NCBI RefSeq assembly: GCF_003207795.1
Contig: NZ_NIRT01000017.1
Location: 1 to 64,000, forward strand
Source of the DNA: Komagataeibacter nataicola
GTDB taxonomy: Bacteria; Pseudomonadota; Alphaproteobacteria; Acetobacterales; Acetobacteraceae
DNA: 64,000 bases
Direction: 5' to 3'
The notes under the pieces are model-generated. The model was not told where the DNA came from, searched no databases, and was given only the letters and a program-made list of their open reading frames with translations. Below are positions 36,456 through 55,001 of the stretch, one piece after another. A program made the translations under genes and the position numbers. Numbering within the stretch: position 1 is the stretch's first letter; each line of letters starts with the position of its first letter.

Positions 36456-38342
36456 TCAGCCCTGCGGGCCGTCCGTTAGCGGCAGGCGGGTGAGGATCGT
36501 GGTCAGGCGGCGGGCGAAGCCGGTGGGGTCCTTCGGGCTTTCACCATCCTGAATCCGGGCCATGTCCATCAGCGTCAGCGCAATGTCCTGCACCGGGTCG
36601 CCATTCTTCACGCGGGTGGCGAGATCGGCAATCAGCGGATGGGCCGGGTTGACCTGCAGCACCGGCGCGGTGTCGGGCACCTGCTGGCCGCTGCGCTTCA
36701 TCAGCCGGATCATCTGCAGGTCCGGCCCGGATTCGGGGGCGGCCAGCACTACGGCGCTGTTGACGAGGCGGTTGGTGCCCTTCACGTCGGACACCGCATC
36801 ACCCAGCGCTTCCTTCAGCGCGGGGATCACGACTTCCAGCGCGTCCTTTTCAGCCTGCGTCTCCTCTGGCGCACCGAACTTTTCAAGATCGGTGTGGAAC
36901 TGGCTGATGTTGCGGATGGGCACGTCCTTGTACACGCCCAGGCGCTCGGGCCAGAACGAGTCCACCGGGTCGGACAGCAGCAGCACCTCGATGCCACGCG
37001 CGCGGAAGCCCTCGAGCTGCGGCGAGGAGGGCAGCATTTCCGTGCGGTCGCCGGTCAGGTAGTAAATGGCTTCCTGCTCGGGCTTCTTGCGCTCGAGATA
37101 GGCGTCAAGCGTGGTCCAGCCTTCCTGCGTGCTGGAGCGGAAGCGAGCGATGGTGGCGAGTTCCGTGCGGTGGGTCGCGTCGTCCCAGATGCCTTCCTTG
37201 AAGGTGGGGCCGAAATTTTCCCAGAACTTCTCGAAATCCGCCTCGTCCTTGCTGCGGGTCTTGAGTTCCGAGATCACGCGGTTGGTCACCGCCTTGCGGA
37301 TGCGCGCGAGCACCGGCGTAGCCTGCAGCATCTCACGCGAGACGTTGAGCGGCAGATCCTCGGTATCGACCACGCCGGTCACGAACCGCAGCCACGGCGG
37401 CAGCAGGCCGGCATCATCGGTAATGAACATGCGGCGCACATGCAGGCGGATCTGGCTCTCGCGCACCGGCTCGGCAAACTCGAAGGGCTTGCTGCCGGGA
37501 ATGAACAGCAGCGCAGAGAACTCCATCGTGCCTTCGGCATGCCAGTGCAGCGTGGCCCAGGGCGTGTCGAAGTTGTGGCTTACGTGACGATAGAACTCGT
37601 TGAGCTGCTCTTCATCGATCTCGCCGCGCGGCTTGCGCCACAGGGCCGTGCCTTTGTTGGCCGCGGTTTCCTCGCCATCATCCTTGACGATGGTGATCGG
37701 CCACGAAATATGGTCGGCCCATTTGCGAACGATGGTTTCAAGCTGCCATGAATCGAGGAAGTCGTTCGCATCTTCCTTGATGTGCAGGATGATGTCGGTG
37801 CCCGCCTTGTCGCGCGTGGCGGGGCTGATGGTGTAGTTGCCCTTGCCGGTGGAGGACCAGCACCAGGCCTCGTCACTGCCCGCGCGGCGCGAGATCACGT
37901 CCACCCTGTCCGCCACCATGAAGGCGGCATAGAAGCCCACGCCGAACTGGCCGATCAGGCTTGGCTTGTCCTCGGGCCTGGCGTTGGCCAGCTCCTCACC
38001 AAAGGCGCGGGTGCCTGAGCGGGCGATGGTGCCGAGGTTGCGGGCAAGGTCTTCCTTGCTCATGCCCGCGCCATCATCGCTGATGGTCAGCAGGCGGGCT
38101 TCCTTATCGGGGTTGATGCGGATCTTGGCATCTTCGGGCAGGGCGCGCGCGCCATCGGTCAGCGCCTCGAAGCGGCGCTTGTCGGTGGCGTCCGCCGCGT
38201 TGGCGACCAGCTCGCGCAGGAAGATTTCACGCTCGGAATAAAGCGCATGCACCACAAGGTCGAGCAGGCGGCCGACCTCGGCGCTGAATTCATGCTGTTC
38301 GCCCTTGGCTTCGGGCGGGGTCGTGGTGGTCTGTTCCGTCAT
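36456..38342 (-). CDS. htpG: Molecular chaperone HtpG (Hsp90)
   Basis: The 628-residue chaperone contains the GHKL ATPase domain: [19 protein letters not shown] (the N-box; note NAADA rather than the common NASDA), [34 protein letters not shown]. The middle and dimerisation domains complete the protein, with [11 protein letters not shown] as a landmark. HtpG is an ATP-driven chaperone induced by heat stress. ATG 38342 (MTEQTTTT) fits the family; upstream in-frame codons do not. A plausible sigma-32 promoter lies 50-80 bases upstream. Confidence 0.95.
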
Positions 38343-38392
38343 GGTTTGTCCAGTCTGTCTGTTGCAATGCATCAGGTTACAATTTGTATTGG

Positions 38393-38420
38393 ATATGGAA
38401 ATCCCGGTCGGTTTTTCAAT
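38393..38420 (-). promoter_or_regulatory. Candidate sigma-32 (RpoH) promoter of htpG
   Basis: On the minus strand TTGAAA (38414-38419) and CCATAT (38393-38398) are 15 bases apart, matching the heat-shock pattern CTTGAAA with a CCCCATNT -10 (here ttCCATAT after 13 bases). The -10 lies about 50 bases before the htpG start. The match is by eye; one upstream C and two of the -10 Cs are absent. Confidence 0.5.
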
Positions 38421-38481
38421 GGCCTGACAGCGCAACGCCCGAAAGCGGCGAGGGGCGAGGTTTTTGTTGATCGACGCGGCC

Positions 38482-38556: not shown

Positions 38557-39186
38557 TCAGTCAAAATCCGTGGGCAGGTCCGGGTTGGCGGCATGTTCGA
38601 ACATGCGGCTCAGCTGGCGGGGCAGCACGCGGCCGAGCGACAGGTCGGTGGGCAGGCTGTCTGCTGCAAACCAGCCAATCTCCGATGTCTCGATACTGGT
38701 TTCGGCGCTGCCGCCGGTCAGTTCGCAGATGAAACAAAGCGTGCAGCATGAAAACGGTCCGGGCGGATGGCCCTGCCGGTCGCGGTCCCACACGGCGGCG
38801 AGTTTGGTCACGCGCACGCTAAACCCGCTTTCCTCGCGCACTTCCTTCACCGTGTTTTCCACCGGGGTCAGGTTCACATCCGCCCAGCCGCCCGGCAGGG
38901 TCCAGCGGTCATGATCCAGCACCTCGCGCACCAGCAGCATCCGGCCCTGCGCATCAAACACGGCGGCGCGCACCACCAGCTTGGGCGTGGCATAGCCATC
39001 CTGACTGCTGAACAGGTCGAGCACGCGCGTCATGTCGGCATGACTGCCTGCGGCCATCATGTCAGCTGCGATCTGCCTTATGCTTTCATAGCGTTCACGG
39101 TCGAACGGACTTTCGGCATAGGCCAGGCCACTTTGCGCCAGCGCCTGCAGGTCACGGGCCCAGATGAGCCATTGCGGGGTTGTCAT
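38557..39186 (-). CDS. NUDIX hydrolase with N-terminal NUDIX_N_2-type domain
   Basis: The 209-residue protein starts with a helical N-terminal region (WLIWARDLQALAQSGLAYAE, DRERYESIRQIAADMM) typical of the NUDIX_N_2 subgroup, followed by a Nudix fold. The Nudix box reads GGWADVNLTPVENTVKEVREESG in two blocks (about 105-127). The catalytic REEXXG-type EEs and G are kept, while the first Glu and the Arg of the general consensus are Leu and Lys, a variation also known in this subgroup. Substrate is likely a nucleoside diphosphate derivative, not determinable. Its ATG overlaps the stop of the cupin gene by 4 bases. Confidence 0.86.
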   Translation of the reverse strand: MTTPQWLIWARDLQALAQSGLAYAESPFDRERYESIRQIAADMMAAGSHADMTRVLDLFSSQDGYATPKLVVRAAVFDAQGRMLLVREVLDHDRWTLPGGWADVNLTPVENTVKEVREESGFSVRVTKLAAVWDRDRQGHPPGPFSCCTLCFICELTGGSAETSIETSEIGWFAADSLPTDLSLGRVLPRQLSRMFEHAANPDLPTDFD

Positions 39187-39641
39187 GCATTTTCTCCTTC
39201 GGGCGACCAGCCGGGCGGGGCCAGTTCAAACTGGCTGAAAACAAAGGCAGGAGCCACCTGGCAGCCCATAAGGCTCCATGCCCCCTGGCTTTGAGCCGCC
39301 TGCCATGCCCCCGGTGGCACCACCGCCTGCAGCACCTGCCCCTGTGCGGGCAACGGGCCGAGCACGATCTGCACGATCGGCGCGCCCTGCCCCGCTGCCA
39401 TTTCAAGCACCAGCGGGCTGCCACCCTGCCAGCACCAGATCTCGGCCGCATCAACGCGGTGCCAGTGCGAGCGCTCGCCCGCCGCCAGCAGGAAATTGAT
39501 GGTCGAGACCGCGCCACGCGGGCCATCGGCGGGCGTATCGCGCCATATTTCGCGGTAGCTTCCGCCTTCGGGGTGGGGTTGCAGGCCCAGCAGGTGTCGC
39601 ACGGTCTCGGCAGGGGTGTTGGGGTCTCGCAAATCTGTCAT
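39183..39641 (-). CDS. Cupin-5 (DUF985) family protein
   Basis: The 152-residue single-domain protein matches the DUF985/cupin_5 family: HPEGGSYREIWRD near residue 20, INFLLAAGERSHWHRVDAAEIWCW in the middle with His residues that could bind metal, and CQVAPAFVFSQFELAPPGWSP at the end. Family members have a cupin barrel but no agreed function. ATG 39641 (MTDLRDPN) is chosen over the longer frame, which runs into repeat copy F. Coupled to the NUDIX gene by an ATGA overlap. Confidence 0.85.
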   Translation of the reverse strand: MTDLRDPNTPAETVRHLLGLQPHPEGGSYREIWRDTPADGPRGAVSTINFLLAAGERSHWHRVDAAEIWCWQGGSPLVLEMAAGQGAPIVQIVLGPLPAQGQVLQAVVPPGAWQAAQSQGAWSLMGCQVAPAFVFSQFELAPPGWSPEGENA

Positions 39642-39723
39642 GGGGTTCTGGCTCCGGTCATGATCGCATGGTCCGGCGTAGCCCTCCTGCCGCCGGGCTG
39701 CAAACGGCAGGCAGATAGGGCGT

Positions 39724-39804
39724 AAGAGTTTTTGAGCGCCGCCTTTTTTCAAAAGGGCGGCGTTCTTCGAAGCTTCTTGAAAAAAGCTTCACCAAAAACT
39801 TCTT
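39724..39804 (-). repeat. Dispersed double-hairpin palindromic repeat, copy F
   Basis: A complete reverse-orientation copy: aagagtttttgagcgcc, the GCC-type hairpin (gccgccttttttc / aaaagggcggc), gttcttcg, the GAAGC-type hairpin (aagcttcttg / aaaaaagctt) and caccaaaaacttctt. It sits just after the chorismate-lyase-like gene, i.e. at the distal end of the cellulose operon, and before the cupin gene. Confidence 0.9.
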
Positions 39805-40487
39805 CAGGGATTAGGGCCGCTCTGGCCCTGAAGCATAAAAGCGAGGGTCTGGTCGGTATAGGTTTCCACCACCTCGCTAAAGGCGCGTCCCTGCCCGTCA
39901 CGCAGCACCGCGCGCTGGCGCACGATTTCAGCCGGAGCCACGATCATTGCCGTGGCCTGCCCCGCGGCCGGGCCGGGCCACGGCGACCACAGCCGCGCGA
40001 ACTCCAGCCGCTCGCGGGTAAAACGCAGGGGGGCCACCACATGGCCGAAGGATGTGTCCGTTCCTTCCAGCGTGGCGTTCATCCGTGGGGTCAGCAGGCC
40101 GGGCACATACCAGTTGTCCGCAACCGAAAGCACATATGGGCCGCAGACCAGTTGCACCTGCCGGTGCCGCACGGGTTGCGTGGCGCCCACCCCCAGATCA
40201 GCCCGCACCCGCGCGGGCACGCGATCAGGTTGCGGCAGGGCTGCCTTCCGCGCCACCACAACCGGGCGGGCGGCCATATGGTGGGCGGCACACCAGTCCT
40301 CCAGCGCCAGCGTGGCGCTGGGGTGGGTGAGCAGGGTTATTTCCAGTTCCTGCACGCTCATCATCAGGCGCGCGCGCGCATCTGGCGTATCAGGCCACGA
40401 GAGGCTGGCCGCCATTACCGGGCTGGCAGGCAGCAGGCCAGCCCCCATCACCGCCGCTGCAAGCAGTCCCCTGCCCATTACATCCAC
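39804..40487 (-). CDS. Exported protein with a putative chorismate-lyase-like fold, coupled to bglxA
   Basis: The 227-residue protein begins with a signal peptide (MDVMGRGLLAAAVMGAGLLP, cleavage near ASPVMA at 26). The mature chain has blocks resembling a chorismate-lyase/UTRA-like family: SATLALEDWC, RHRQVQLVCGPYVLSVADNW, YVPGLLTPRMNATLEGTDTS and VLRDGQGRAFSEVVETYT. A similar pattern (ADNWYVP, LTPEMN, TDTPFG) occurs in uncharacterised bacterial proteins; the family link is from memory and is inference. The start is 2 bases after the bglxA stop, so it is the last gene of the cellulose operon here. A secreted chorismate lyase would be unexpected; a ligand-binding role in the periplasm is equally possible. 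Confidence 0.65.
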   Translation of the reverse strand: MDVMGRGLLAAAVMGAGLLPASPVMAASLSWPDTPDARARLMMSVQELEITLLTHPSATLALEDWCAAHHMAARPVVVARKAALPQPDRVPARVRADLGVGATQPVRHRQVQLVCGPYVLSVADNWYVPGLLTPRMNATLEGTDTSFGHVVAPLRFTRERLEFARLWSPWPGPAAGQATAMIVAPAEIVRQRAVLRDGQGRAFSEVVETYTDQTLAFMLQGQSGPNP

Positions 40488-40489
40488 TC

Positions 40490-42697
40490 TCAGGGCGCCA
40501 TGGTCCGTCCATGCAGGTGCATGGTGGCCTGCTGGCTGTCATCCGTGGCGCATGCCGCAAGCCACACGCGGAAGGTGCCCGAGGGCACGCTCCACCGGTC
40601 ATGCCTGTCATCGAAATGCGCCAGCAGACGCGGGTCGATCCGCACCGAGACCTGGCGGCTCTCGCCCGGCGCCAGGCTGATACGCTGCCAGCCCGCCAGG
40701 CGGCGCGCGCCACCATCGGGCAGGCTGACATAGACCTGCGGCACGTCCACGCCCGGCCGCGTGCCGGTGTTGTGCACGTTGAACGTGGCCGTCACCTGCC
40801 CGTGGTGTTCACCCACCTTCAGCCCGTCAGAGCTGAACGTGGTGTAGGTCAGGCCATAACCGAACGGATAAAGCGGCTTGAAGTGATTGCGGTCGAACCA
40901 GCGGTAGCCGACATCGCTGCCTTCATCGTAAACCAGCTCCTGATCGGTGTGGAACTGCATCTCGAACACGTTATCCGCCGTAACGCCTGCAATATCGGGG
41001 TGGGCCAGCTGCGACTCCGCCTGCGGGAAGGTCATGGTCAGGTGCCCCGAAGGCGCCACCTTGCCAAACAGCAGCCGGGCAATGGCCGGACCACCGCCAG
41101 AACCGGGGAACCACGCCTCAAGCACACCTGCCACGCTGTTGTTCCACGGCATCAGCACGGGGTCGCCGGTTTCCATCACCACGACCGTGCGCGGGTTGGC
41201 GGCGGCGACTGCCGTAATCAGCGCATCGGCATTATCATCAAGGTGCATGCTCGGCGCGTCCATCCCCTCGAAGGTGAACTGCGTGGCATAGACCACCACC
41301 ACGTCAGCCGCGCGCGCGGCCCGCACGGCAGAGGCGATACTGGTGCCGGAATCATAGGTGATCCGGGCCTGCGGCGCCTCGGCCTTCATGGCCTTGAGCG
41401 GCGAGGACGGGAAATAGACCGGGTCGCCCGGCCATTCCTTCTTGCCCGGTCCCTTTACCGCCTCGCCCCCAATGGGTTCGACCTGGCTCGACCCGCCACC
41501 TGAAATCACCCCCGCATCGGCATGGCCGCCAATGACGGCGATGCGCGCGGTGGGCGAAAGCGGCAGGATGTTGCCCTGGTTGCGCAGCAGGACCGCGCCT
41601 TCCTCCTCGTCCTTCTGGGCCACGAGGGTATCGGTCACCACATCAAGCGGCTTCTGCTGCGGCGGATGGTCCACCAGCCCGATGGCAAACAGCGAGCGGA
41701 CGATGCGCTGCGCCATGTCATCGATGCGCGCCTGGGGCACACGGCCCGCCTTTACATCGGCTGCAAGCAGGGTGCGGAAATAAGGCCGGGCATCGGTATG
41801 ATCGCCCGCCGATTCCTGATCCAGCCCCGCCAGCGCCGCCCGCGCGGAGGAATGCGTGCCCCCCCAGTCGGACATGACAAAGCCGGGATAATGCCAGTCC
41901 TGCTTGAGCGTCCTGGTCAGCAGGTAGGGGTTTTCACAGGCATACAGATCATTGACACGGTTATACGAACACATGACCGAACCGGGATGCCCGGTTTCAA
42001 GTGCGATCTCGAAGCCCAGCAGGTCGCTCTCGCGCATGGCCGCGGGGGCGATATCGGCACTCATGGTCATGCGTGAGGTTTCAAGGTCATTCATCGCATA
42101 ATGCTTGAGCGTGGAGATCACATGCTGCGACTGCACGCCCGCAATGGTGCTGCCCACCATGCGCCCGGTCTGCAGCGGATCTTCACCGGCATATTCAAAG
42201 TTGCGGCCGCCACGCGGGTCGCGGGTCAGGTCCGCGCCACCGCCCAGTATGATGTTGAAGCCGCTCTGCCACGCCTCGCGCCCGATCATGGCACCAGCCT
42301 GCCGCGCCATGTCCATATCCCACGTACTGGCCGTAGACAGGCCCGACGGCAGCGAAACCGCCGCCCCATTCTTGCGGATATGCGCCGGGTTGCGCACGCC
42401 AAGCCCCGCATCCGAAATCTGCAGGTCGGGCAGGCCCGAGCCCTTGGGTGCCCGCAGGTACGCAGCCGAGCCCAGGCCGCCGGGAGGGGCCACGCTGCCG
42501 TTAAAGCCACCGCCATCAACACTGAACAGCAGGGACATCTTGTCCTCAAGGCTCATGGAGGCCAGCACCTGCCGCGCCCGGACATCGGCCGGATCGCCCC
42601 CGTCATCATGCGCATGCCGCGCGAAAGCGGGCACCTGGGCCAGCGCCATGCCACACGCCACGGCGGATAACAGGAATATCTTGCGGGACAGTTTCAT
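40490..42697 (-). CDS. bglxA: Periplasmic/secreted beta-glucosidase, GH3 (BglxA)
   Basis: The 735-residue protein has a signal peptide (MKLSRKIFLLSAVACGMALAQ, cleavage near FAR) and three GH3 parts: an N-terminal TIM barrel with the nucleophile Asp277 in VMSDWGGTHSS and KHYAMNDLE substrate contacts, a second alpha/beta sandwich with the acid/base region, and a C-terminal fibronectin III-like domain (VDVPQVYVSLP). BglxA follows the bcs genes in Komagataeibacter and hydrolyses cello-oligosaccharides; it contributes to cellulose yield. ATG 42697 is chosen. A terminator lies between it and bcsD, so it probably has its own or readthrough transcription. Confidence 0.94.
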   Translation of the reverse strand: MKLSRKIFLLSAVACGMALAQVPAFARHAHDDGGDPADVRARQVLASMSLEDKMSLLFSVDGGGFNGSVAPPGGLGSAAYLRAPKGSGLPDLQISDAGLGVRNPAHIRKNGAAVSLPSGLSTASTWDMDMARQAGAMIGREAWQSGFNIILGGGADLTRDPRGGRNFEYAGEDPLQTGRMVGSTIAGVQSQHVISTLKHYAMNDLETSRMTMSADIAPAAMRESDLLGFEIALETGHPGSVMCSYNRVNDLYACENPYLLTRTLKQDWHYPGFVMSDWGGTHSSARAALAGLDQESAGDHTDARPYFRTLLAADVKAGRVPQARIDDMAQRIVRSLFAIGLVDHPPQQKPLDVVTDTLVAQKDEEEGAVLLRNQGNILPLSPTARIAVIGGHADAGVISGGGSSQVEPIGGEAVKGPGKKEWPGDPVYFPSSPLKAMKAEAPQARITYDSGTSIASAVRAARAADVVVVYATQFTFEGMDAPSMHLDDNADALITAVAAANPRTVVVMETGDPVLMPWNNSVAGVLEAWFPGSGGGPAIARLLFGKVAPSGHLTMTFPQAESQLAHPDIAGVTADNVFEMQFHTDQELVYDEGSDVGYRWFDRNHFKPLYPFGYGLTYTTFSSDGLKVGEHHGQVTATFNVHNTGTRPGVDVPQVYVSLPDGGARRLAGWQRISLAPGESRQVSVRIDPRLLAHFDDRHDRWSVPSGTFRVWLAACATDDSQQATMHLHGRTMAP

Positions 42698-42840
42698 GTG
42701 GCTGGCTCCTCCTTCAGGGGCTGGGCAGTGACAGCACGGGCTGCCTGCGCCCGCCATCTCCTCAGTCCATTTGTGAAGCACCCTGCCCCCGCGCCGCATG
42801 ATCTAGCGCAAAAACAGAGCAAAGAGTGGAGGTCATATAC

Positions 42841-42892
42841 GCAAAAAACCCTGCCTACAGGGCATGAACACGCCTGTAGGCAGGGTTTTGAC
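42841..42892. terminator. Terminator between bcsD and bglxA
   Basis: aaaaaaccctgcctacag and ctgtaggcagggtttt form a 13-bp stem around a loop gcatgaacacgc-type insert, with A and T runs on both sides, so it can act in both directions. It sits 24 bases after the bcsD stop, inside the cellulose operon. Confidence 0.88.
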
Positions 42893-42915
42893 GCAAATGG
42901 CGCGCCTGATCGGGA

Positions 42916-43386
42916 TCAGGTCGCAGCGCTACGGGTGCGCATATAGAGAATAACCGTCTGGGCCGGGACCGAGTTCAGGTCTTCCGCGTCGATATCACGC
43001 GTTACGACATAGTCACCGAATGCGCCGGGCTGCGACGTGATCCAGCGGCCATAAAGCCCTTCCAGCACCGGGGCGAGCCATGTGCCGGCGGGTTCGCCCG
43101 CGCTGCCCACCTGCGGCAGGTCTTCATGCACGATGCGCATGGCCTGTTCTTCCGCCAGCAGGTCCAGCTTCACGTAACCCCAGTTGATCATGGCCAGCAG
43201 GGCGTTCAGCTCGATCTGGAGCTGGTGGATGGTGTTGCACAGCGGCGGCTGGAAACGACCAGCCATACCCCGGCCGACCTCGCGCAACAGGTCATTGCGG
43301 ACCTCGATCCCGGCCTGATCATCAATCTCCCAGGACAGGGCCTGCAGGAAGAGCGAAAAGTCCGGTTTTGCGTTCAAAGTTGTCAT
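42916..43386 (-). CDS. bcsD: Cellulose synthase subunit D
   Basis: The 156-residue protein is the Komagataeibacter BcsD, a periplasmic octamer with internal channels that guide glucan chains and raise crystallinity. Family landmarks are SLFLQALSWEIDDQAG, REVGRGMAGRFQPPLC, ELNALLAMINWGYVKL and the C-terminal TVILYMRTRSA. There is no signal peptide, as usual for BcsD. Its ATG overlaps the bcsC stop by one base (translational coupling), and a strong terminator follows. Confidence 0.96.
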   Translation of the reverse strand: MTTLNAKPDFSLFLQALSWEIDDQAGIEVRNDLLREVGRGMAGRFQPPLCNTIHQLQIELNALLAMINWGYVKLDLLAEEQAMRIVHEDLPQVGSAGEPAGTWLAPVLEGLYGRWITSQPGAFGDYVVTRDIDAEDLNSVPAQTVILYMRTRSAAT

Positions 43387-46300
43387 TACTGGTCCATAAT
43401 AAGATAGTGTGCGGAAATCATGGCGCCGCTTTCAGTCCAGTTACCGGCCTTCTGATAGCGCCCCGAGAGATCAAGACGAACATTGCGTGTAAAGCGATAG
43501 CCCACCCTAGCATTAAAGCCACCGGTAAGACCAGCAATACTATCCCCGGGATAGTAGGCGCTGTTCACCGTTTCCTCCGACAGATAGTCCGCCGGCGTGG
43601 CACTCGCCGAGTAATTCGAGGCAATGGTATTGGCGCCGGACTGCAGCAGGGATGACGTGGGGAAGAAGGGCGCCGAGTGCTCATGGAACACCTGGTAGCC
43701 CACGCTGCCCGTCACATCCCAGTCCAGCCGCTTGTGCTGCCCCGCGTAGCGGATCGGCACGGTCGCCGCATAATAGGATTGCGGCGAGAAGTAACCACCC
43801 TGCCCGTAGGTGTAGAAATCCTCGTTCTTGGCATAACCGAAATACGTCAGGCTTACACCGATGCGCACCAGCATGTTGGCGTTATGCCACACCAGCGTGT
43901 TGGCGCCGATGCCGGCTTCGCGCTCGCTGTTGCGCTGCACGTTCTTGCCGGTCTGGATTGCATAGCCACCACCACCATACAGGATGGTGTTGCCCAGCGT
44001 TGCCTCGACCTGGCCGTGGAAGTGGTTGGTCACGACCCCACCCCATTCGCGGCTCCACTGGCTGGACAGTTCCTTGCCATAGAGCTGGCGGGCATAGCGG
44101 CCAAGCGGGCTGTTGTAATTCGAGTCACGCAACCCGCCATAAGACAGCACGCTGTTGGTGATCGACCGACGCTCGGCGCTGACACGGAACGTAACCGGCC
44201 CCACGCGCGGCGAGAACTCGACCCCCCCCAGCACGTTGGTGATGGGGAAGCCAATGGGCGAGGCGCCGACATCGGCACGCACCCAGCTATTGCCAAACTG
44301 CACATCGGGCGCAAAACCGGCCTCGGCCGAGGCTGCGGCGATACGCTGCTGGTCCTTGCCCGCGTTGCTATAGCTATCGTACTGGTTATACGCCTGCACG
44401 CCCATCATCGTGCCATAACGCGGCACATCATAGACGGAACCTGTGTTGAGGTTGCCCGACCAGATCATGGTTGGCGTGATCGAGAAGGTCAGGGCGGACG
44501 CACCCGCCTGCAGCGGCAGGCGACCCACGATGGGAATGTTCGCTTCCGTCAGGCGGCCCATGCCATGCTCGCCCGAACGTGACCGGAACCCGAGGCCACC
44601 ATCAATGGAGGGCGCAAGGTTTTCACGCAGCGTGTGGATCTGCCCAGCAATGGAGGAGAGCATCTGGTCCGATGTATCGGGGGATGCCGCCTCGGCGCTG
44701 TAGGAGCCACCGGTCACAGGCGCGCCAAGTTCCGTCTGGTGCCCGTAGCCACGTGGGCGGAACGGGTTGGTCGAGGGCGGGGCAAGCGCCTCTTCCTGCG
44801 CGGCGCCAGCCGCGGCCCGCGTGCCCTCAACCTGCTGCAGGCGCAGGTCATAGGCCCGGCGCAGATCCTCGATGGTGCGCTGCCCATGGCCATCAGCCTG
44901 GTCAGCCACGGCCATGGCCAGCCAGGCGCGGGCATCCATCGGGCTTTCCTGCACGCCATCCATGGCGAGGCGGGTGGCGAGGCTGTTGTGGTCACTGTTG
45001 ACCGCAGCCTGCACCGCTGCCTGCCGCGCATCAAGATCCTGCGGGTTGTGACGCAGCACCGCAAGGTCGATCTCGAGCGCCTTGCCCGGCTTGCCGTGGC
45101 CGTTATACAGCCGCGCAAGCGCCAGCTTGGGCGATGTCGCCTCCGGGTCGGCCTGCAGGGCGGGTGCCAGATGATCATAGGCCTGCGCCTGATCGCCACG
45201 CTGGTTGAGCAGGTCAGACTGCGCTACCGAGATGCCCATGCGCAGTTGCTGCAGCGTCTGCATCTGCTCGGGCAGCAGCGCATTGCCAGCACCCGAACCC
45301 GCGCCATCACCAAGCGGGGCCAGCAGGCGCGCGGCCGCCACCGGGTTGCTGATCTTCATGTATTCGGTGGCGTAGGACAGACGCTGGTCGGGCGAAAGAT
45401 CGATGGTGCGCGTCGAGGCGATACGCAGCGCCATGCGCGCATGCACCATGTCGCCACGCTGGCGGAACAGGTCAGCCACCGCCACGCCACGCGCGCCGGT
45501 CGGATCAGGCTGGGAAAGGGCTTCGCGGATCAGCGGCACCGGGTTGGACACCATGGACAGGCGGCTGGCCAGATCCTGCTTGATTTCCATTTCCTCCGCG
45601 ATGGAGCGGATCGCGGGGGAATAATCCGCAGGCGACAGACCGGCCAGAAGCCGACGGGTCATCGCATCATTGCCACTGCCATAGGTATACAGGATACCGG
45701 CCTGGCGGTCCTGCGCGGTGACAGGATTGGCCAGAATGGGCTGCATCACGCGCCCGGCTTCAGCCACATCGCCCTGCTGCTGCAGCGCATTGGCAAGGTT
45801 GATGCGCACCCACGGGTCGCGCGGGGCCTGGGCCATCGCTTCACGCAGGATGGAAACCTTGCGCGCGGAATCCGATGTCTGGGACGCAGCCGCCATCAGG
45901 CCGGAAACCTCGATTTCGCCCACCTGGCTGGCATATTGCGGGCCGACACGCGACAGGAGCTGGCGGGCTTCCGCCGTGTTGCCCTGCGCCATATCAACCC
46001 GCGCCAGCCCCATCAGGGCAAGCTGGTTATCGGGCTCACGCGACAGGATGCCACGATATTCCTGCTCGGCAGCGGCAACCTGGCCGGTCGAGCGCTGCAG
46101 GTCGGCCAGCATGAGGGTCGCGCCAGTGTACTGCCCGGGCTGGCGAGCCAGCGTGGCAAGCCGCTGCTTGGCCTCGGTGTACTGATGGGCGGCGATCAAC
46201 TGGCGAACGGAAGCATACTCGCCGCTCACCTCCATACCCGCCAGCGCCGGACGCCAGCGACTGGCGGTCTTGGGATCGGCGGCTATAGCTTCTTCAAAAT

Positions 46301-54925: not shown

Positions 54926-55001
54926 TGGCGTCCCGTAGGGGATTCGAACCCCTGTTGCCGCCGTGAGAGGGCAGTGTCCTAGGCCTCTAGACGAACGGGA
55001 C
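54926..55001 (-). tRNA. tRNA-Glu (anticodon CTC)
   Basis: The minus strand reads gtcccgttcgtctagaggcc at its 5' end and ends acgggac-g-cca, a 76-nt cloverleaf with a 7-bp acceptor stem and encoded CCA. The anticodon arm is ctgcc-ctctcac-ggcgg, giving CTC for glutamate. The T arm shows the ggttcgaatcccc pattern. It stands alone just upstream of the cellulose operon, transcribed in the same direction, with a terminator of its own. Confidence 0.95.

What the first reader, a model, noticed from the sequence alone, without database searches (positions are those of the whole stretch)
39804..42697. Exported chorismate-lyase-like gene translationally coupled to bglxA at the end of the cellulose operon
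Seen: a 227-residue protein with a signal peptide starts 2 bases after the bglxA stop and is followed by a palindromic repeat, so it behaves as the last gene of the cellulose gene run. Its conserved blocks (ADNW, YVPGLLTPRMN, TDTSFG, FSEVVETYT) recall chorismate-lyase/UTRA-type folds. Known: the published Komagataeibacter operon ends with bglxA. Inference: a periplasmic ligand-binding or aromatic-processing protein may take part in cellulose formation or its sensing.
Basis: partly seen in the sequence, partly recalled or inferred. Interest (0 to 1): 0.6.

Follow-up and report, generated by a model that had tools for sequence, protein, structure and literature searches.

The report
Exported chorismate-lyase-fold protein beside cellulose genes
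The gene after bglxA encodes an unnamed, probably exported protein with the fold and key pocket residues of chorismate lyase, but it belongs to a wider family with no general link to cellulose and seems to sit beside the cellulose genes by position rather than by shared function.

Summary
A 224-227 aa, probably exported protein (X) follows bglxA by 2 nt (GTG) or 11 nt (ATG); the tight junction recurs in 16 of 19 genomes of the genus. The fold guess is right: the AlphaFold2 model (pLDDT 90) matches AF1396 (DUF98/Rv2949c-like), UTRA domains and UbiC, and the positions of UbiC's product contacts are conserved. The cellulose inference is not supported. In 10 of 10 named Gluconacetobacter species X keeps the same downstream cupin-nudix-htpG block without neighbouring cellulose genes and overlaps a permease gene by 4 nt. 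In 200 Acetobacteraceae the family is not associated with BcsB (22 of 59 versus 44 of 141, p 0.41). In this strain a strong terminator-like hairpin separates bcsD from bglxA. Elsewhere the family lies beside aroA and, on Ti plasmids examined, in the vir region. Best reading: a periplasmic protein with a chorismate/4-hydroxybenzoate-type pocket, possibly an exported chorismate lyase. Activity is untested.

The parts
39804..40487 (-). X: probably exported chorismate-lyase-fold protein, 227 aa from GTG 40487 (224 aa from ATG 40478)
40478..40492 (-). bglxA stop / X start junction (gap 2 or 11 nt); tight in 16 of 19 genus genomes
40490..42697 (-). bglxA, GH3 enzyme (ORF opens at 42799; likely start MKLSRK at 42697)
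42845..42889 (-). 17-bp perfect hairpin running into a T tract between bcsD and bglxA, terminator-like
42916..43386 (-). bcsD (Cellsynth_D)
39727..39800 (.). Dispersed palindromic repeat between X and the cupin gene
39183..39752 (-). Cupin_5 (DUF985) gene, first gene of the block that follows X in Komagataeibacter and Gluconacetobacter
38557..39186 (-). Nudix hydrolase gene, same block
36456..38435 (-). htpG-like gene, same block (name from recall of the sequence, not scanned)

Best explanation
X is a periplasmic single-domain protein of the chorismate-lyase/UTRA fold, nearest to the DUF98 (Rv2949c-like) branch, with counterparts of the UbiC product contacts (R109, E208, F147, A58). It most likely binds chorismate or 4-hydroxybenzoate-like aromatic acids in the periplasm, and may cleave chorismate to 4-hydroxybenzoate plus pyruvate. 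It belongs with the downstream cupin-nudix-htpG block; in Komagataeibacter the cellulose genes lie before it (which arrangement is older is not settled). The coupling to bglxA would set its expression and is not by itself evidence of a cellulose function. Shown: gene, conservation, predicted fold, conserved pocket positions, no general link to cellulose. Inferred: export, ligand, activity.
For: Fold. Pocket: R109 in 96 of 96 rows, F147 in 95 of 96, A58 in 92 of 96, E208 in 95 of 95 rows with a residue there; register on E. coli UbiC; UbiC contacts Arg76, Glu155, Met34, Leu114 from PMC7879144 (passages). Export: both cysteines C66 and C115 in 60 of 60 rows with a scored signal, 15 of 31 without (rows are related, so no p-value is given). 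Shikimate link: aroA within about 2.2 kb in 24 of the 95 loci printed. No general cellulose link. Function kept: 19 of 19 genus genomes, dN/dS 0.30.
Against: No Pfam or NCBIfam hit for X itself. Of 75 members 8 touch DUF5994 (best 9.8e-4), 3 UTRA (best 0.02), 2 Rv2949c-like (best 0.17). The PDB profile search found no UbiC chain, and the profile match to UbiC is weak (hhalign probability 3.4%, P 0.013; column confidence 0 at the E208 end). From recall, UTRA pockets also use Arg and Glu, so R109/E208 do not prove lyase chemistry. Chorismate is made in the cytoplasm, so an exported lyase lacks an obvious substrate source. The aroA link is mostly in other clades than the Komagataeibacter one. The tight bglxA junction in 16 of 19 genomes is also what a real cellulose role would give.
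Confidence: 0.5

Rival explanations
1. X was recruited in Komagataeibacter and the related genus g73 as a periplasmic cellulose accessory protein, for example a sensor or binder of cello-oligosaccharides released by BglxA.
For: Tight bglxA-X junction in 16 of 19 genus genomes and in 3 of 3 g73 genomes (+2, +2, +4). UTRA domains of this fold bind sugar phosphates (DasR and YvoA entries).
Against: Same tight coupling to a permease gene in 10 of 10 named Gluconacetobacter species. Kept in the 3 of 19 genomes where bcsD, not bglxA, precedes it. No association with BcsB. Terminator-like hairpin upstream of bglxA in this strain.
Confidence: 0.2
2. X is a periplasmic UTRA-like binding protein without catalysis, with a non-aromatic ligand (sugar or phosphorylated compound).
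For: UTRA structures score as close as UbiC (Z 10.9 versus 10.3) and better in Foldseek (about 1e-5 versus 2e-3); 3 of 75 members touch UTRA in Pfam.
Against: The family profile finds the DUF98 structure 2nwi in the PDB and no UTRA chain at E up to 10. No DNA-binding domain. The four UbiC contact positions line up, weakly.
Confidence: 0.2
3. The family is the missing cytoplasmic chorismate lyase for ubiquinone in Acetobacteraceae, and the N-terminal 'signal' is not used for export.
For: UbiC (PF04345) is found in 5 of 200 genomes, none of them among the 59 with the X family (p 0.32, so the exclusion itself is not significant). Members without a scored signal exist, some at aroA (L064, L131, L132).
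Against: Signals are clear in most members, some are lipoproteins, and the cysteine pair goes with them. 141 of 200 genomes have no family member at E up to 0.001, so many genomes must get 4-hydroxybenzoate by another route.
Confidence: 0.1

Closest known systems
AF1396 (PDB 2nwi), DUF98 / Rv2949c-like chorismate pyruvate-lyase family (PF01947)
   Same: Best structural match (Foldseek 1.8e-6, Z 13.4) and the only PDB sequence-profile match (E 1.1e-4).
   Different: X has a signal peptide and does not match the PF01947 model; identity about 13%.
UbiC chorismate lyase (PF04345)
   Same: Same fold (1g81: Z 10.3, 144 residues, 3.7 A); R76, E155, L114 and M34 align with R109, E208, F147 and A58.
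   Different: No Pfam hit, about 15% identity, signal peptide, no ubiA match in the loci held (tblastn with E. coli UbiA).
UTRA effector domain of GntR/HutC repressors (PF07702)
   Same: Same fold (best Z 10.9).
   Different: X has no DNA-binding domain and a signal peptide; UTRA chains are not found by the family profile.
Exported chorismate mutases (AroQ gamma) and cyclohexadienyl dehydratase (PMC10520331, passages)
   Same: Precedent for chorismate-pathway enzymes with signal peptides and a debated role.
   Different: Other reactions and folds; 'chorismate lyase' does not occur in that paper's text.

Membership tests
UbiC chorismate lyase (PF04345) | Pfam model match | tested here: not met
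UbiC chorismate lyase (PF04345) | Chorismate-lyase fold | tested here: met
   1g81 Z 10.3, 3.7 A over 144 residues (predicted model)
UbiC chorismate lyase (PF04345) | Product-contact residues (Arg76, Glu155, Leu114, Met34) | tested here: met
   Arg and Glu kept; Leu and Met are Phe and Ala (main-chain contacts in UbiC). The alignment is weak.
UbiC chorismate lyase (PF04345) | Chorismate to 4-hydroxybenzoate activity | not testable with these tools
   needs an assay
Rv2949c-like (PF01947) | Pfam model match | tested here: not met
   2 of 75 members, best E 0.17
Rv2949c-like (PF01947) | Fold and sequence-profile kinship to AF1396 | tested here: met
GntR/HutC regulators with UTRA | UTRA model match | tested here: not met
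   3 of 75 members, best E 0.02; none for X itself
GntR/HutC regulators with UTRA | N-terminal winged-helix DNA-binding domain | tested here: not met
   no Pfam hit; the model has one domain after about 28 low-confidence residues
Cellulose synthesis accessory gene | Position next to bcs genes in the genus | tested here: met
   16 of 19 after bglxA, 3 of 19 after bcsD
Cellulose synthesis accessory gene | Co-occurrence with bcs genes across genomes | tested here: not met
   22 of 59 versus 44 of 141, p 0.41
Cellulose synthesis accessory gene | Joint transcript with bcsABCD | tested here: inconclusive
   terminator-like hairpin in 4 of 12 loci; sequence only

The most novel reading that the evidence does not exclude
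X belongs to a family of exported chorismate lyases: periplasmic enzymes, stabilised by a disulfide, that turn chorismate (or a related enolpyruvyl acid) into 4-hydroxybenzoate outside the cytoplasm. Bacteria, many of them plant-associated, carry it beside aroA, on rhizobial plasmids and in the vir region of Ti plasmids, where it could feed or tune phenolic signalling through VirA.
Probability: 0.25. Interest if true: 0.75.

Novelty: new variant of a known kind. Interest (0 to 1): 0.5.

Why it matters
The gene stands directly after a much-studied industrial cellulose gene cluster and is easily taken for part of it. The comparison shows how tight coupling can mislead: the same gene is coupled to a permease gene in a related genus. 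None of its 75 aligned members gave a convincing Pfam name, the family keeps the Arg/Glu pair of chorismate lyase in the rows aligned, and it turns up as 'hypothetical protein' inside the Ti plasmid vir region. It also bears on where bacteria without UbiC obtain 4-hydroxybenzoate.

Tried and rejected
Chance ORF or decaying gene: rejected (19 of 19 genus genomes, dN/dS 0.30).

Single-sequence searches of Pfam, NCBIfam and PDB gave nothing for X (the PDB matches, best E 0.39, look like chance). A weak partial PF04345 match in the window's genome (E 0.142, below the cut-off) overlaps another ORF and was not pursued. Global hhalign gave no usable alignment; only the local one did, and with the lax setting for E208. 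The terminator scan found no more sites than shuffles do (2 versus mean 2.6); the hairpin rests on its own fold. It is absent from L032 and 7 further loci of the 12. A vir-box scan on a Ti and an Ri stretch gave many two-mismatch hits and no box directly before the Ti homologue. Whether that gene is one of the acetosyringone-induced hypotheticals listed in PMC6629968 (passages) could not be settled, because the record carries no old locus tags. The disulfide C66-C115 is inferred from co-occurrence; distances in the model were not measured. The family member in L103 was missed by tblastn with X and found by the profile. Alignment A1 holds 75 of the 76 candidate rows: L030, which runs off its contig end, was left out and L002 was replaced by the window sequence.

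Tree: quick method, 1 row dropped and 3 rows fragmentary (L042, L117, L095) through my own cutting of matched stretches; used for broad clades only.

Full report
What is there. The ORF 39804-40487 on the minus strand encodes 227 aa from GTG, 2 nt after the bglxA stop, or 224 aa from an ATG 11 nt after it. It has a plausible signal peptide by my own hydrophobicity rule. The gene before it is a GH3 enzyme, then bcsD; after it come a Cupin_5 gene, a Nudix gene and an htpG-like gene (name recalled). X itself has no Pfam or NCBIfam hit at E up to 1.

Conservation and junction. All 19 genomes of the genus that were searched have one family match each. The genus is Komagataeibacter: a same-genus genome carries the X sequence of K. 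saccharivorans. In 16 of 19 the first listed start lies between -4 and +11 nt of the bglxA stop; in 3 of 19 bcsD, not bglxA, precedes X, at 38 nt or more. Cupin and Nudix genes follow in 19 of 19. In 3 of 3 genomes of genus g73 bglxA also precedes X (+2, +2, +4; in the last a GTG at -23 is possible). Median dN/dS over 66 pairs of 12 sequences is 0.30, range 0.16-0.48.

Control for coupling. In 10 of 10 named Gluconacetobacter species X keeps the cupin-nudix-htpG block but has no Bcs or BglxA match in the 16-kb stretch held. There X overlaps by 4 nt the stop of a permease gene; Pfam names one of these Xan_ur_permease, PF00860 (L046). So X is tightly coupled to different upstream genes, and the coupling to bglxA does not by itself argue for a cellulose role. 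Which arrangement is older is not settled.

Link to cellulose. Of 200 genomes drawn from the family, 59 hold the X family at E up to 0.001 and 66 hold BcsB. Both occur in 22, X alone in 37, BcsB alone in 44, neither in 97; odds ratio 1.31, p 0.41. The genomes are related, so the test is rough. In this strain a 17-bp perfect hairpin running into T lies between bcsD and bglxA (-32.7 kcal/mol, z -8.6). A like hairpin is in 4 of 12 loci examined, the window included. Against a separate transcript: the simple scan found no promoter-like site on the minus strand in 39600-43500, and no more terminator-like sites than shuffles.

Fold. A 75-member alignment (A1) gave an AlphaFold2 model with pLDDT 90.0 and pTM 0.83. 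Foldseek ranks 2nwi (AF1396, DUF98) first at 1.8e-6, then many UTRA domains, and UbiC at about 2e-3. VIA-align gives Z 13.4 for 2nwi, 10.9 for the best UTRA chains and 10.3 for UbiC, and 4.5 for the first chain of another kind. hmmsearch with the family profile finds only 2nwi in the PDB, at E 1.1e-4, and neither a UTRA nor a UbiC chain at E up to 10. Scanned singly, 8 of 75 members touch DUF5994 (best 9.8e-4), 3 UTRA (0.02) and 2 Rv2949c-like (0.17).

Pocket. PMC7879144 (passages) names Arg76, Glu155 and the amides of Met34 and Leu114 as the contacts of 4-hydroxybenzoate in E. coli chorismate lyase. With the E. coli sequence fetched (numbers one higher because of Met1), hhalign sets R109 on that Arg, F147 on that Leu and A58 on that Met, and with a laxer setting E208 on that Glu. 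The alignment is weak (P 0.013; reversed control 0.26; column confidence 0 at the E208 end), so the register rests on its agreement with the fold. In 96 rows R109 and G148 are invariant, F147 is Tyr once, A58 is replaced in 4, and E208 is present in the 95 rows that have a residue there. Duplicate loci were dropped before this count.

Export. By my rule 60 rows of the 96 carry a signal peptide or lipobox, and all 60 have both C66 and C115. Of 31 rows without a scored signal 15 have both; some of these have a signal-like stretch that the rule missed, for example L026 and L027. The five remaining rows, plasmid proteins that were not scored, also have both. Eleven rows without a scored signal form one clade (SH-aLRT 91), and others occur elsewhere. 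One genome, G479, holds one member with a signal and one without.

Where else. aroA (EPSP synthase by Pfam for one) lies within about 2.2 kb in 24 of the 95 loci printed; some rows there are short stretches or repeats. UbiC is found in 5 of 200 genomes of the family, 4 over the cut-off, and none of the 5 holds the X family (p 0.32). In a class sample, own genome included, the counts are 8 of 289 for the X family and 3 of 289 for UbiC. PF01947 reaches its cut-off in 1 of 200, a genome that UbiC also found. On plasmids, 193 of 72,556 records match X, mostly Rhizobium (99) and Agrobacterium (85); in the rows listed the annotation is 'hypothetical protein' or missing. On three Ti-type records looked at (pTiC58; pMP90, from recall its derivative; pTiSule1) the homologue lies in the vir region between virA/tzs and VirK. 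On two Ri plasmids it lies about 6 kb from a VirA-like kinase gene. On four other rhizobial plasmids no vir genes were near, nor on pNGR234a.

Papers. Two papers on the K. hansenii gene cluster place bglxA downstream of the synthase genes and, in the passages seen, name no gene after it (PMC10106347, PMC4806288). No paper in the held library has both 'chorismate lyase' and 'Komagataeibacter', and none has 'exported', 'periplasmic' or 'secreted chorismate lyase'. Exported chorismate mutases are known and their role is debated (PMC10520331, passages). Rv2949c makes p-hydroxybenzoic acid (PMC7205293, passages).

Judgement. Fold: about 0.9. Export: about 0.85. Not a dedicated cellulose gene: about 0.75. 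Aromatic-acid pocket: about 0.5. Lyase activity outside the cytoplasm: about 0.25.

Noticed in passing
L141:8893-9603, L143:8893-9603, L145:7408-8118: The X homologue (WP_010974912.1 in C58) sits in the vir region of Ti plasmids, between virA/tzs and VirK/P450 genes, annotated 'hypothetical protein'; homologues also lie on Ri and rhizobial plasmids.
   Followed up: partly
window 42845-42889: 17-bp perfect hairpin running into T between bcsD and bglxA, present in 4 of 12 loci examined.
   Followed up: partly
window 14205, 23297, 38485, 39738, 63681: Dispersed palindrome like GCCGCCTTTTTTCAAAAAGGCGGC (6 hits at 5 sites, shuffles 0).
   Followed up: partly
L043, L044: Cellulose loci of K. melaceti and K. 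saccharivorans show no BcsC match between BcsB and BcsD, and no BglxA match before X.
   Followed up: no
200 genomes of the family: UbiC in 5 of 200 and PF01947 over its cut-off in 1 of 200, so the source of 4-hydroxybenzoate for ubiquinone in much of the family is unclear; other routes such as XanB2 were not searched.
   Followed up: partly
L117 and L122 (G479): One genome holds two members of the X family, one with and one without a scored signal.
   Followed up: no
window 54929-55001: tRNA gene upstream of the cellulose genes (Rfam RF00005).
   Followed up: no
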